Origin: a virus | Length of the DNA stretch: 35,332 nucleotides | Strand: one strand, 5' to 3' | Virus record (IMG/VR): IMGVR_UViG_3300033145_000228 | Location: 1 to 35,332 of that record | Part shown: piece by piece, positions 26,944-33,545 of the stretch | Layout of the letters: each line of letters begins with the position of its first letter | Numbering within the stretch: position 1 is the first letter of the stretch | The notes under the pieces: model-generated | What the model saw: only the letters and a program-made list of their open reading frames with translations | Database searches by the model: none | What the model was told of the DNA's origin: nothing | Translations under genes and position numbers: made by a program

Positions 26944-27039
26944 ATGGAGAAGTCAGACCACGCTTACATGGGCACTTTATGGGGGCAAATTCCATTATTT
27001 CTAGCACGTCCGAGATTGCAATTAAAACAAAGGATTTGA
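26944..27039 (+). pseudogene. Probable 5' remnant of a gene interrupted by an HNH insertion
   Basis: AAAGGAGAG precedes an ATG at ideal spacing. The frame reads MEKSDHAYMGTLWGQIPLFL and ends 32 codons later, overlapping the antisense HNH gene from 26964. The strong initiation site with a short, HNH-overlapping tail suggests that the original gene was cut by the insertion. Confidence 0.45.
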
Positions 27040-27473
27040 TAATCGGCTGGGTAACTATGTTTTTTTAGCCACCCATAAATACTCCCGCCTTCTTTCAATT
27101 GCAAGGCTCTGGCAGTTCTGGTTGTTCCGTTGATGTGGTCGATACTCAAAAACCCCATATTAGTTTCTCCACAACAAGCACAAACGGAACCTCCGTAAGC
27201 ATTATAGGCTTCCATCCTAAGTTTCATTCGCCGCTCTTTTGCAATTTGCAAACGCTTTTCATGGTTTTTGCGATAACCCCTTCTCTGATAGGCCTTTTGT
27301 TTTTCGGGGTATTGTTCCCTGAACAATTTCGACCTCTCACGTCCACCACCATGCCAATAATAAGATTTTTCGCATTCCCTACAAGAGGGACGAAGGCCGT
27401 CAATCTTTGTTTTATCTTTAGTAAAAGATTCAATCGATTTATCTTGCCTACATTTAGTACAACTTTTTATCAT
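26964..27473 (-). CDS. HNH endonuclease on the opposite strand, 169 aa
   Basis: Mobile nuclease gene reading against all neighbours. N-terminal zinc knuckle CTKCRQDKS and CRECEKSY; a long basic helix (KAYQRRGYRKNHEKRLQIAK); then the HNH core: CACCGETNMGFLSIDHINGT and CFNCNLGRARNNGICPH. These are the typical DH-(x)-CxxC features of HNH homing proteins linked to phages. GAGGTG precedes the ATG. Its 3' end overlaps the small remnant ORF on the plus strand, consistent with insertion. Host-like neighbours on both sides are late genes, so it needs its own promoter. Confidence 0.93.
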   Translation of the reverse strand: MIKSCTKCRQDKSIESFTKDKTKIDGLRPSCRECEKSYYWHGGGRERSKLFREQYPEKQKAYQRRGYRKNHEKRLQIAKERRMKLRMEAYNAYGGSVCACCGETNMGFLSIDHINGTTRTARALQLKEGGSIYGWLKKHSYPADYQILCFNCNLGRARNNGICPHKVPM

Positions 27474-28434: not shown

Positions 28435-28488
28435 TGTAATCCGTCTTAGTACGGGTGACATCCGAGGGGTGTTTTTTTGTCCCAAACT
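28435..28488 (+). terminator. Strong rho-independent terminator, three nested stems
   Basis: CCCCTCG (28435-28441) pairs with CGAGGGG (28473-28479). Inside it GGTGT pairs with ACATC, and CCGT with ACGG, then TTTTTTT (28482-28488). It ends the long rightward virion block and separates it from the promoter at 28515. Confidence 0.92.
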
Positions 28489-28514: not shown

Positions 28515-28543
28515 TTGACAAATAGCTTTTAGTATGCTATAGT
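28515..28543 (+). promoter_or_regulatory. Sigma70-type promoter with extended -10
   Basis: TTGACA (28515-28520), 17 bases, TATAGT (28538-28543), preceded by TGC. The similarity to the promoter at 2222 (shared TTGACAAATA and TGCTATA) suggests one regulatory class. It drives the RHH gene and the recombination operon. Confidence 0.88.
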
Positions 28544-28574: not shown

Positions 28575-28721
28575 ATGCCGACTAGAGATTCAGACATTTT
28601 AACCACAAGGGTTGATAATGAAACCATTAAATTAATAAAGCAGAGGTTGAATAAAAAGAAACCGACAGTAAATGCTTGGATGAACTGGGCTATTAAATTG
28701 GGGTTGAGGAGGCATGGGTAA
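28575..28721 (+). CDS. Ribbon-helix-helix DNA-binding protein, 48 aa
   Basis: A short Arc/CopG-type regulator. MPTRDSDILTTRVDNETIKL has the strand (ILTTRVD) followed by helix A (NETIKLIKQRLNKKK) and helix B (VNAWMNWAIKLGL). The strand Thr-Thr-Arg residues would contact DNA in the major groove. AAAGGAG precedes the ATG. As the first gene of the operon it may autoregulate the promoter at 28515 or act on the palindromes at 2153 and 32834; that is inference. TAATG overlap with the next gene. Confidence 0.75.
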   Translation: MPTRDSDILTTRVDNETIKLIKQRLNKKKPTVNAWMNWAIKLGLRRHG

Positions 28722-28963
28722 TGAATATTGGTAAGTACAAGATAGAGAGTGATTCCCTCAATGTTACGTTATCCAAGAAGGGGAAGAACAGGAAAACGGG
28801 TACGGAAACGTGGAAGATTTGTGGTTACTTCTCCAGCCCGAAGTTCGCGCTGAATCATCTGGTAAATCTTGAGGTAATGGAAACCGGCATGGCAGACATT
28901 ACTACGGTAGTTCAGAAAATTGAGGAGCTACGCAAACTAATACAAGGGTTAAAATTTGATTAA
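28721..28963 (+). CDS. Hypothetical phage protein, 80 aa
   Basis: Coupled to the RHH gene by TAATG. Starts MNIGKYKIESDSLNVTLSKK with a beta-rich first half (ETWKICGYFSSPKFALNHL) and a C-terminal coiled-coil helix (TVVQKIEELRKLIQGL). This layout recalls small DUF5405-like phage proteins; the name is tentative. No activity known. Confidence 0.6.
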   Translation: MNIGKYKIESDSLNVTLSKKGKNRKTGTETWKICGYFSSPKFALNHLVNLEVMETGMADITTVVQKIEELRKLIQGLKFD

Positions 28964-28987: not shown

Positions 28988-29575
28988 ATGTGTGAATTTA
29001 TGAGTGCGGTAAAGACCCGGAACAAGTGGTATTTCTTGACCCATGAACTTATCCACAATACGCCAAGGGGAGAGATGATACAAAAGAAATACCCAGGTGA
29101 GGGTGAAGTAATCGGACACTCGGCAATAAGGGAATACTTCTCACTTGATGACAATGACGGCGAAAACTGGGAGTGTACCGACTTCTCCAGCCCCAAGAAC
29201 TTCCCTGCAATAATCGTAAAGGCAATTAAAAGAGGTGATTTCAGGGGCTTTGGTTACCCCTATGGGCTATTACTTCCAAACGTTTACGATGACTACGGGG
29301 CAAAACTTAAGCTTCTGCACGATGGCCACTGGGTAAAGCGTAAACCCCTAGACGATGACTACTGGGCAAAGCGTAAGTCTCTGTACGATGACTACTGGGC
29401 AAAGCGTAAGTCTCTGCACGATGACTACTGGGCAAAGCGTAAGTCTCTGCACGATGACTACGAGGCAAAGCGTAAACCCCTAGACGATGACTACTGGGCA
29501 AAGCGTAAGTCTCTGCACAATGACTACTGGGATTTATTCGCAGACCCTAAAAACAGGGCAAAGGCATGGGGGTAA
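28988..29575 (+). CDS. Protein with 11-residue tandem repeats, 195 aa
   Basis: The first 100 residues form a mixed domain (MCEFMSAVKTRNKWYFLTHE, ending GYPYGLLLPNVY). From residue about 101 to 180 the chain repeats an 11-residue unit of the form DDYWAKRKSLH seven times (33-bp DNA units), then closes with DLFADPKNRAKAWG. Repeats with 11 residues fit a hendecad helix, giving a continuous charged amphipathic coiled coil with Trp/Tyr on one face and Arg/Lys on the other. The function is unknown; a structural or inhibitory role is possible. AGGAGG precedes the ATG. Confidence 0.7.
   Translation: MCEFMSAVKTRNKWYFLTHELIHNTPRGEMIQKKYPGEGEVIGHSAIREYFSLDDNDGENWECTDFSSPKNFPAIIVKAIKRGDFRGFGYPYGLLLPNVYDDYGAKLKLLHDGHWVKRKPLDDDYWAKRKSLYDDYWAKRKSLHDDYWAKRKSLHDDYEAKRKPLDDDYWAKRKSLHNDYWDLFADPKNRAKAWG
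29288..29530 (+). repeat. 33-bp tandem repeats, seven units plus a partial eighth
   Basis: Units begin at 29288, 29321, 29354, 29387, 29420, 29453 and 29486, with a partial one from 29519. Units 4, 5 and 7 are identical. Each starts GATGACTACTGGGCAAAG or a close variant. Units 2 and 6 share a CCCCTAGAC end, suggesting a block duplication. Confidence 0.95.
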
Positions 29576-30016: not shown

Positions 30017-30147
30017 TGAAAACTAAAGTGTTTATCACCTTCATAGTAGAGCATGAGGATGATACCGACCTGCAAGATAAAATATCAGACATAACTTGGG
30101 GTAGGGAAATAGAGAATATCAATTGGGAGGACGAAGATGGCGAGTAA
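30013..30147 (+). CDS. Hypothetical protein, 44 aa
   Basis: AAGGAGA precedes a double ATG (30013 or 30016). The acidic protein starts MKTKVFITFIVEHEDD, strand-like, with DKISDITWGREIENINW following. It overlaps the RecB-like nuclease gene by 11 bases. No family recognised; the arrangement suggests coupling to the nuclease. Confidence 0.5.
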   Translation: MMKTKVFITFIVEHEDDTDLQDKISDITWGREIENINWEDEDGE

Positions 30148-30799
30148 AACTAAAGACGCCCCTAATAAATCAAGGGCGCACACTATCTATAAATTGGATG
30201 ATGGGACAAGGATTCCCGGTGTTACTACTATCCTGAATTCAGTATTGAACAAACCGGCCCTTGTCGCTTGGGCCAACAGACTAGGGCTTCAGGGGATTGA
30301 CAGTTCCAAGTACCGCGATGAAATGGCAGACATCGGTACACTTGCACACCAGATGATAGTGGATTATTTTAATAAAGTCGAAACGGATACCACTGATTAT
30401 TCTGAAAACCAGATAGACCTTGCCGAAAATTGCCTGCTGTCATTCTGGGAATGGGAAAAGGGGCATAAGATAGAAGTCATTATGGCAGAGAAGCAGTTAA
30501 TATCCAAAGAGTATAACTTCGGGGGTACCATAGACTGCTTTTGTAAACTGGATGGCCAGTGGACATTACTTGATTTCAAGACGGGGAAGGCTATTTACCC
30601 CGAAATGTTTTACCAGTTAGCTGCCTACGAGCAACTACTAGCTGAAAATGGGCGGCTGATTGAAGTAACTAGAATACTTCGCATAGGGCGGGATAAGGAT
30701 GAGGGATTTGAGGAACAGTTAGTAGCTGATACCACCAAGCACTTTGAATTATTTAAGCATTGCCTAGCGATATATAATCTCAAGAAGGATATAAAATAA
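30137..30799 (+). CDS. RecB/Cas4-like PD-(D/E)XK exonuclease, 220 aa
   Basis: Probable DNA exonuclease of the recombination module. Motifs in order: GTLAH with His71, EKQL with Glu118, FGGTIDCF with Asp133, LLDFKTG with Asp146 and Lys148, and YQLAAYE with Gln160 and Tyr164. This is the PDDEXK_1/RecB nuclease pattern. The N-terminal part (IPGVTTILNSVLNK) is also usual in phage members. No helicase domain and no four-Cys iron-sulphur cluster is seen. It lies upstream of SSB and the annealing protein; together they would resect ends and anneal strands. GGAGG precedes the ATG. Confidence 0.88.
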   Translation: MASKTKDAPNKSRAHTIYKLDDGTRIPGVTTILNSVLNKPALVAWANRLGLQGIDSSKYRDEMADIGTLAHQMIVDYFNKVETDTTDYSENQIDLAENCLLSFWEWEKGHKIEVIMAEKQLISKEYNFGGTIDCFCKLDGQWTLLDFKTGKAIYPEMFYQLAAYEQLLAENGRLIEVTRILRIGRDKDEGFEEQLVADTTKHFELFKHCLAIYNLKKDIK

Positions 30800-31542: not shown

Positions 31543-31586
31543 AATGGTACTTGACATTACACCAGATTATTACACAAGGAGATGAT

Positions 31587-32228
31587 ATGAATAAATCAGA
31601 ATCAACAAAGGAAATAGCGGCAGCATTAGCTAAAGTTCAAGCGGTCTTAAAAGGGGCGGCAAAGGATTCCGTCAACCCGTTCTTCCACTCCACGTACGCT
31701 GACTTAGCATCTGTGTGGGAAGCCTGCAGGAAACCCCTATCAGACAACGGACTATCGGTAGTACAAACAACGGCAGTCGGTGAGGGGCATGCCCTGATAG
31801 TAGAGACAACTCTACTCCATATAAGCGGTGAGTGGATAAGCGGCCAGATGCCTATGCTCTTAAATAAGCAAGACCCACAGGGGATAGGGCAAGCGATAAC
31901 TTATGGGAGAAGGTACGGGCTATCAGCTATAGTAGGTATCTGCCCTGAAGATGATGACGCTGAACCGGAGAGAAAAGAACCGCCCAAGAAAACGGTAAAG
32001 AAAACCGAACCACCTGAATTTAACCTTGATTTGATGGAATCCAGCTTGAAACGATTGGGCGAAGCAAACCCTGAAAAGTGGGGACACACCGTAGTGGCTG
32101 GTAAACTTATGAATTTAGGAGCCAGGGGTGATACCATGAGAGACCTGCTGTTTACTTTAAGTAACGTAGGTCGAGACAAATTAAGTAAAGCAGTTAGTAC
32201 GGCACTGGCAGGAGTTCAAAATGTTTGA
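31587..32228 (+). CDS. erf: Erf/Sak-type single-strand annealing protein, 213 aa
   Basis: Start MNKSESTKEIAAAL is set by AAGGAG, not the TTG 36 bases upstream. The core NPFFHSTYADLASVWEACR, GLSVVQTTAV and DPQGIGQAITYGRRYGL is the ERF family signature, with YGRRY the conserved end of the annealing domain. The C-terminal third is acidic then basic (PEDDDAEPERKEPPKKTVKK) with a small helical domain after it. It pairs complementary strands during recombination and concatemer formation, with SSB and the RecB-like nuclease. Overlaps the next gene by eight bases. Confidence 0.93.
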   Translation: MNKSESTKEIAAALAKVQAVLKGAAKDSVNPFFHSTYADLASVWEACRKPLSDNGLSVVQTTAVGEGHALIVETTLLHISGEWISGQMPMLLNKQDPQGIGQAITYGRRYGLSAIVGICPEDDDAEPERKEPPKKTVKKTEPPEFNLDLMESSLKRLGEANPEKWGHTVVAGKLMNLGARGDTMRDLLFTLSNVGRDKLSKAVSTALAGVQNV

Positions 32229-33461: not shown

Positions 33462-33545
33462 TGTTAGTATTGTTAGTAATTGTATGTTTGTTGTTTGTAA
33501 TTGTTAGTAAATTAGGTCTATGTTAGTATTGTTAGTATTGTTAGG
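33462..33545. repeat. TGTTAGTA repeat cluster (iteron-like)
   Basis: TGTTAGTA occurs at 33462, 33471, 33502, 33521 and 33530, with a shortened TGTTAGG at 33539 and a variant TGTTTGTA at 33492. Several are spaced 9 bases apart. The cluster is AT-rich, without genes, and directly precedes the P-loop ATPase; the last copy merges with its Shine-Dalgarno (TTAGGAG). The rest of 33397-33553 holds no gene. Confidence 0.7.

What the first reader, a model, noticed from the sequence alone, without database searches (positions are those of the whole stretch)
28988..29575. Hendecad-repeat protein with identical 33-bp units
Seven 11-residue repeats encoded by near-identical 33-bp units, following a unique N-terminal domain. 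Eleven residues make three helical turns, so the region may form a long straight charged helix with aromatic face. DNA identity indicates ongoing expansion or contraction. The function is unknown and the early-operon position suggests host interaction.
Basis: partly seen in the sequence, partly recalled or inferred. Interest (0 to 1): 0.55.

Follow-up and report, generated by a model that had tools for sequence, protein, structure and literature searches.

The report
Phage protein with expandable helical arm
An early gene of an unnamed bacterial virus encodes a small conserved head joined to an arm of repeated 11-residue units; related viruses carry anywhere from one to seventeen units, or have quite different repeats in place of the arm, which points to a fast-changing protein part whose target is still unknown.

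Summary
The repeats are real: seven in-frame 33-bp units (29285-29515), mean pairwise DNA identity 84%, between a 96-residue head and a short C-terminal cap. The head is not unique. It defines a family collected here as 57 genes in 51 records, with Cys2 in 56 of 57. No acceptable match was found in PDB sequences, Pfam, PHROGs, NCBIfam or GenBank phages.

Unit number varies: head-to-cap length is 11N+4 in 22 of 29 aligned members, N 1 to 17; the window's is 11N+7. Close relatives differ (10 vs 5; 6, 7, 2), assembly errors not excluded. Same-residue codons agree 97% within arrays, 45% between phages (21 arrays). Fourteen genes carry other repeats instead.

AlphaFold gives helix, more likely an antiparallel hairpin with the cap on the head than a straight rod; AlphaFold is known to bend coiled coils. 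Early-operon position is plausible. My best reading is a length-tolerant, recombination-diversified arm that binds a host factor; the target is unknown, and a neutral array is a strong rival.

The parts
28457..28473 (+). terminator-like stem and T run that may close the preceding transcription unit
   Evidence: consensus scan, (5 found in the region, 3.6 expected; a lead only)
28515..28543 (+). promoter-like site TTGACA-17-TATAGT with extended -10, likely start of the early operon
   Evidence: consensus scan: 11 of 12 matches, best of 13 sites (9.6 expected, sd 3.4)
28575..28721 (+). first gene of the operon, 48 aa; looks like a ribbon-helix-helix protein (by eye)
   Evidence: ORF with ribosome site; only a weak PHROG match (phrog_2963, E 0.0048) to the 59-aa reading from 28542
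28721..28963 (+). second gene, 80 aa, PHROG 154 (annotated replication initiation protein)
   Evidence: E 2e-13; DUF5405 below cut-off
28988..29275 (+). head domain (residues 1-96) of the repeat protein; Cys2, Ser6, Gly43, His44 and Pro73 conserved
   Evidence: alignments A3 and A5; model
29285..29515 (+). seven 33-bp units, 11 residues each (residues 100-176), predicted helical
29516..29524 (+). junction residues HND; +3 offset against the family rule of 11N+4
29525..29572 (+). C-terminal cap YWDLFADPKNRAKAWG, conserved in the hendecad members aligned and in the one heptad member
30137..30799 (+). exonuclease (PHROG 298), downstream in the same direction
   Evidence: E 4.2e-29
31587..32228 (+). 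Erf-type single-strand annealing protein
   Evidence: Pfam ERF 2.2e-25; PHROG 2324, (searched as 31551-32225)

Best explanation
The gene encodes a small, early-expressed phage protein made of a compact conserved head, an arm of 11-residue units and a C-terminal cap. The arm is helical and most likely folds back as an antiparallel hairpin, so that the cap docks on the head whatever the number of units. Units are gained and lost whole by recombination or replication slippage between near-identical 33-bp repeats; each step adds 11 residues (three helical turns) and keeps frame and register. Shown by sequence: family, repeats, whole-unit differences between assembled relatives, homogenisation. Predicted: helix, hairpin, cap docking. 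Inferred: the arm is a length-tolerant, fast-evolving binding surface for a host factor early in infection, and the head is the constant functional or anchoring part.
For: Head conserved across 57 genes in 51 records with the start fixed at M-C (56 of 57 Cys2). Head-to-cap length 11N+4 in 22 of 29 aligned members, N 1 to 17. Close relatives differ by whole units: 10 vs 5 (5,451 bases up to and into the array 99.7% identical), 6/7/2, and 16 vs 14 with paralogs 9 vs 13. Codon identity for the same residue at the same unit position: 0.966 within arrays, 0.449 between phages, 0.432 among head codons of the same genes (21 arrays). Two models: the window (pLDDT 92.6, pTM 0.78) and the 2-unit member L016 (92.3, 0.85), where helix 96-106, loop 107-112 and helix 113-125 read as a hairpin. 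In both, the equivalent head Leu (95/94) and cap Arg (190/131) are the isolated bridge residues. Structural matches of the window model span 94-195 on chains that I recall as helical hairpins. Units diversify (pN above pS in 17 of 21 arrays; 156 non-synonymous vs 29 synonymous distinct changes), while three of six head pairs tested give about 0.2. Early-operon position.
Against: AlphaFold is reported to bend long coiled coils spuriously (PMC11676326, passages read). DSSP labels 97-185 of the window model as unbroken helix, without the loop expected at a hairpin tip; only confidence dips at 131-150. The register read from L016 (unit-position sum about 10, good to 1 or 2) scores poorly itself in a sequence scan, where 8 or 9 score well, so that check is inconclusive. 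The window's own array has pN/pS 0.59, no sign of diversifying selection there. Four arrays (L003, L006, L050, L053) are degenerate, unit DNA identity 0.36-0.60, so homogenisation is not universal. The window, L007 and L057 are off the 11N+4 rule by +3, and L006, L050, L053 and the heptad member L027 by other amounts. No binding partner is known; apart from the head itself, no neighbour was found in more than two of 33 loci.
Confidence: 0.4

Rival explanations
1. The array is a tolerated, nearly neutral insertion. Function lies in the head plus cap, and unit number drifts because slippage in 33-bp repeats is frequent and always in frame.
For: Unit number runs from 1 to 17 without visible change in head or cap; L058 has no repeat above shuffles; slippage alone would give multiples of 11; the window's array has pN/pS 0.59 and the weighted family ratio is only 1.39.
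Against: An 11-residue array is present above shuffled controls in 31 of 57 genes and other repeat kinds in 14, which neutrality does not predict; only 6 of 28 hendecad arms depart from 11N+4 although head loops vary in length; 17 of 21 arrays have pN above pS.
Confidence: 0.3
2. The repeats form one long straight helix, alone or in a parallel coiled coil or rod; the hairpin is an AlphaFold bending artefact.
For: DSSP of the window model is one helix 97-185; spurious bending of long coiled coils by AlphaFold is documented (PMC11676326, passages); unit length 11 suits a straight hendecad coiled coil.
Against: The cap bridge residue 190 must pair with a residue that DSSP labels as strand or bridge, and all others lie in the head; the two-unit member L016, which has no long coiled coil, is modelled as helix-loop-helix with the same cap bridge residue; many of the matches are chains recalled as hairpins.
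Confidence: 0.25
3. Copy-number differences among relatives are assembly errors (collapsed or expanded repeats), while the repeats themselves are real.
For: All relatives are IMG/VR contigs or one MAG; 7 of 51 records end inside this gene, 5 of them in the repeat array; the contig of L012/L038 (5 units) ends 55 bases behind the gene's stop codon.
Against: Units within an array differ in sequence and most pairs are not identical; L014, L015 and L016 differ by whole units with matching stretches 92-98% identical; paralogs on one contig differ; the pattern recurs in many records.
Confidence: 0.1

Closest known systems
Hendecad (11-residue) coiled coils
   Same: 11-residue unit, three turns, helix predicted; in the I-type members Tyr3, Ile6 and Ala10 follow the 3-4-4 spacing
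   Different: Here the unit is also an expandable DNA repeat, predicted as an intramolecular hairpin between two conserved ends; hydrophobicity of the window's own units is not dominated by the helical harmonic
Antiparallel helical hairpin arms (seryl-tRNA synthetase arm, LSD1 tower, p85 iSH2, CFP-10/ESAT-6; their hairpin nature is recalled)
   Same: Window model residues 94-195 align to chains of these entries
   Different: Z at most 7.3 in the list, a common arrangement only; no sequence kinship claimed; I know of no unit-number variation in those arms (recalled)
Bacterial proteins with variable-number tandem repeats (recalled class)
   Same: In-frame, homogenised, whole-unit copy variation
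   Different: Those best known are surface proteins (recalled); this is an early phage protein with no signal peptide apparent by eye
MORN_2 repeat proteins (PF07661)
   Same: Two genes of one related record with the same head carry MORN_2 tails (L028)
   Different: The window protein has no MORN match

Membership tests
Hendecad coiled coil | 11-residue periodicity | tested here: met
Hendecad coiled coil | helical conformation | tested here: met
   predicted only: helix 97-185, mean pLDDT 92.6
Hendecad coiled coil | hydrophobic core positions with 3-4-4 spacing forming a seam | tested here: inconclusive
   Tyr3/Ile6/Ala10 in I-type arrays; the window type has Tyr3 and Leu10 but Lys at 6; helical harmonic weak in the window
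Antiparallel helical hairpin arm | two antiparallel helices with both ends at one domain | tested here: inconclusive
   cap bridge residue in both models and matches to hairpins, but no coordinates were readable and DSSP shows no break in the window model
Variable-number tandem repeat protein | different unit numbers in close relatives, in frame | tested here: met
   L037/L038 10 vs 5, L014/L015/L016 6/7/2; assembly error not excluded
Variable-number tandem repeat protein | unit number varies within a population | not testable with these tools
   no reads, and no second strain of this phage found
Known Pfam, PHROG or NCBIfam family (head) | profile match | tested here: not met
   24 heads scanned: best E 0.025 (PHROGs), 0.058 (Pfam), 0.0068 (NCBIfam, one member)
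Enzymes with N-terminal Cys nucleophile (SRAP, class II amidotransferases; recalled) | Cys at position 2 with a fixed start | tested here: met
   56 of 57 genes have Cys2; search patterns favoured this motif
Enzymes with N-terminal Cys nucleophile (SRAP, class II amidotransferases; recalled) | sequence or fold match to these families | tested here: inconclusive
   no Pfam or PDB sequence match of the head; VIA compared only 39 chains

The most novel reading that the evidence does not exclude
A phage effector platform: one constant head with an unmatched fold, on which viruses swap at least six kinds of tandem repeat (11-residue hairpin arm, heptads, MORN, 29/31-residue helical repeats, a 21-residue repeat, Ala-rich 4-mers) and expand or shrink them by recombination. 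It would make quickly changing binding arms against host or defence proteins, with the near-invariant N-terminal Cys as part of an active or anchoring site.
Probability: 0.2. Interest if true: 0.75.

Novelty: new variant of a known kind. Interest (0 to 1): 0.5.

Why it matters
If right, phages keep an evolvable repeat arm on a fixed head, whose length can change in single steps of 11 residues without breaking the fold. That is a natural experiment in how protein arms grow, and a candidate class of host-interaction proteins absent from the family libraries searched here. Because a series of unit numbers exists among related viruses, length against function could be tested directly.

Tried and rejected
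Known-family search of the protein and head: Pfam, PHROGs, NCBIfam, PADLOC, PDB sequences, no acceptable match. PHROG hits to members of alignment A1 (best 7.7e-6, one member each) were not assigned to a part of the protein; I take them to be repeat-region matches, since heads alone gave nothing better than 0.025. A Pfam match of L057 to Rpf1_C (E 1.8e-6) lies in its repeats (208-257) and has no stretch that passes alone; rejected. Foldseek of the whole window model: best E 0.78 in PDB and 0.065 in BFVD. L016 head plus cap: 0 of 39 chains with Z 2 or more (VIA), BFVD best E 1.4. VIA only re-examines Foldseek's list, so a novel fold is not shown. Rfam: no match in the window.

tblastn of GenBank phages with L004 hit only repeat stretches in Corynebacterium phages (28-32% identity); rejected as kin. 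L135 of the phylum search (E 9.5e-4) was rejected by eye as an unrelated ORF. A conserved operon partner was sought by clustering up to five predicted genes on each side in 33 loci; no cluster spans more than two loci, except the head's own paralogs in three (in L051 the script picked a wrong central ORF). PHROG and Pfam scans of 116 neighbours (of 140 listed, those of 60 aa or more within three genes) gave 64 and 27 families; in the 25 shown of each, every family matched one member: replication, recombination, methyltransferase and other genes. Stop-codon recoding for L052 was considered and not supported by coding density. The hairpin register scan was inconclusive; its KR-type group held the heptad member L027 and the irregular L006, a small contamination.

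Rows left out. One search used 29 members of alignment A8; left out were duplicates L017 and L062, paralogs L018b and L019b, and L026, L104, L107. In one search L018b, L019b and L026 are at remainder 4, L107 at 3 with the anchor one residue later, L104 at 5 with an uncertain anchor. Of the 29, one search lists 28 arrays (L010 has one unit) and uses 21 for the codon comparison, without L003, L006, L010, L012, L016, L027, L050, L053; one search uses 21, without L003, L006, L007, L010, L016, L027, L050, L053.

Papers: searches (listings seen); nothing on this family in those listings, and 'MCEFVSW' occurs in none of the papers held. CCfrag (PMC11676326): passages read.

Full report
The window is one whole virus record of 35,332 bases. 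The flagged ORF, 28988-29575 on the plus strand, has a good ribosome site and encodes 195 residues. A 33-bp tandem array covers 29286-29531. In frame it is seven full 11-residue units, residues 100-176, of the type DDDYWAKRKSL; an eighth unit merges into a cap, YWDLFADPKNRAKAWG. Mean pairwise DNA identity of the seven units is 0.84 and amino-acid identity 0.72; 1 of 21 unit pairs is identical. The signal is far above the rest of the window.

Position. A terminator-like site and a strong promoter-like site (TTGACA-17-TATAGT, 11 of 12) lie upstream; the number of promoter-like sites in the region is not above chance, so this is a lead. The gene is third behind that site, after a small ORF that looks like a ribbon-helix-helix protein and a PHROG 154 replication-initiation-type protein. 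Further downstream come an exonuclease, an SSB-like ORF (named by eye) and an Erf annealing protein. The early-operon reading is reasonable but rests on consensus matches and gene order.

Family. Starting from the ORF, IMG/VR scans with a single sequence and with alignments gave relatives in several rounds. After removing repeated fetches of the same contigs, and counting paralogs apart, I analysed 57 genes, the window included. The script counts 52 loci; L026 and L058 lie about 13 kb apart on one record, so there are 51 records. Some records are near-duplicates of each other (L016/L017, L061/L062, L069/L070, L047/L048). Seven of the 51 records end inside the gene. Cys2 is present in 56 of 57 genes; the exception, L045, has Tyr. 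L071 appears to start with ATT. The search patterns favoured conserved motifs, including the M-C start, so full invariance is partly a selection effect, although members that do not fit the start pattern (L013 and L022, MCEFIS) also have it. In 40 aligned heads Ser6, Gly43, His44 and Pro73 are invariant.

The head has no acceptable match in the family libraries, and six tblastn queries found no head in 50,697 phage records. A pattern-limited scan of the GTDB genome contigs confirmed one match, in a Parcubacteria MAG next to an elongation-factor-like GTPase gene (named by eye). In 286 genomes of that MAG's phylum only the MAG itself had a convincing match; a second, marginal one was rejected by eye.

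Tails. Among the 57 genes, 31 have an 11-residue period above shuffled tails; 4 short ones have it but not above shuffles; 14 have another period above shuffles: 7/14 (L027), 24 (L028 twice; MORN_2, E 1.1e-19 and 1.6e-33), 29 (L030, and L093 and L094 twice each), 31 (L031), 21 (L066), 4/8 (L067, L069, L070, L071). L053 has an irregular 35-residue period; four show none and three are too short. Records L018, L019, L028, L093 and L094 carry two such genes close together, and the L026/L058 record two farther apart.

Copy number. On the alignment of 29 members, the distance from the last head leucine to the cap is 11N+4 in 22, with N from 1 (L010) to 17 (L021). The window, L007 and L057 are at +3, L006, L050 and L053 at other offsets, and L027 is the heptad member. 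L037 and L038 share 5,451 bases at 99.7% identity and then differ by five units (10 vs 5), but the contig of L038 ends 55 bases behind the gene. L014, L015 and L016 have 6, 7 and 2 units, with matching stretches on both sides 92-98% identical. L018 and L019 have 16 and 14, their paralogs 9 and 13. L093 and L094 differ in length in both of their paralogs, in the 29-residue class (322 vs 380 and 208 vs 236 aa). Against this, L061/L062 (99.97% identical) and the identical pairs L016/L017 and L069/L070 do not differ. Unit numbers in assemblies may be wrong, and no second strain of the window's phage was found.

Process. For the same residue at the same unit position, codons agree in 96.6% of comparisons within arrays, 44.9% between arrays of different phages, and 43.2% among head codons of the same genes (21 arrays). 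That is the mark of recent duplication and homogenisation; four degenerate arrays (L003, L006, L050, L053; unit DNA identity 0.36-0.60) were left out and do not show it. Differences that remain are mostly amino-acid changing: pN exceeds pS in 17 of 21 arrays, weighted ratio 1.39, with 156 non-synonymous and 29 synonymous distinct changes. Of six head comparisons, three give 0.19-0.23 (one of them on five changes), one gives 0.57 on three changes, and two have no synonymous change. The window's own array is at 0.59, so relaxed constraint is as good a reading there.

Structure. The window protein in an alignment of 20 members models at mean pLDDT 92.6, pTM 0.78: small alpha/beta head, helix 97-185, cap. 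The two-unit member L016 (29 aligned) models at 92.3 and 0.85, with helix 96-106, loop 107-112 and helix 113-125. In both models the aligned residues Leu95/Leu94 and Arg190/Arg131 are isolated bridge residues. Since all other strand or bridge residues lie in the head, the cap must touch the head, so the chain must fold back. VIA alignments span 94-195 on chains of which I recall many as helical hairpins. Counter-evidence: no helix break in the DSSP of the window model, no readable coordinates, and AlphaFold's known habit of bending long coiled coils (PMC11676326). I rate the hairpin at about 0.55. An antiparallel hairpin between fixed ends keeps its register when whole units are added, because the residue pairing shifts by exactly one unit; this is my inference, and the register scan that might have tested it was inconclusive.

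Function. No partner gene recurs in the neighbourhoods, which hold scattered replication, recombination and methyltransferase genes. I commit to a length-tolerant arm that binds a host factor early in infection, at 0.4 for the whole statement. A neutral array on a functional head is the strongest rival (0.3). The fixed N-terminal Cys2, with conserved His44, is a lead to an active or anchoring site and was not tested.

Noticed in passing
L052:5001-5390: Head gene with an in-frame TAG inside its single 11-residue unit; the cap continues in the same frame behind it. Coding density does not suggest a recoded stop.
   Followed up: partly
L071:5001-5003: The conserved start lies on an ATT codon behind a good ribosome site; the other new members printed in that call have ATG.
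   Followed up: no
L027:4001-4750: Part of the head (ECTDFSSPDNFPSEIAQAIKDGRFGHI) is itself duplicated in tandem, and the tail is heptad-like.
   Followed up: no
L093:2011-3627 and L094:1837-3711: Tandem paralogous head genes with 29-residue helical repeats, both differing in length between two relatives.
   Followed up: partly
L057:3358-4377 and L064:1364-1882: Neighbouring genes encode other repeat proteins: a pentapeptide-like protein with 31 motif matches, and a MORN-like protein.
   Followed up: no
26964-27473: Minus-strand gene among plus-strand genes, looks like an HNH homing endonuclease (by eye).
   Followed up: no
33462-33544: Nine-base tandem repeat, 8.7 imperfect copies, between predicted genes.
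   Followed up: no
L031:5001-5933: Cellular copy of the head with 31-residue repeats beside an elongation-factor-like GTPase gene in a Parcubacteria MAG; no phage genes seen around it by eye.
   Followed up: partly
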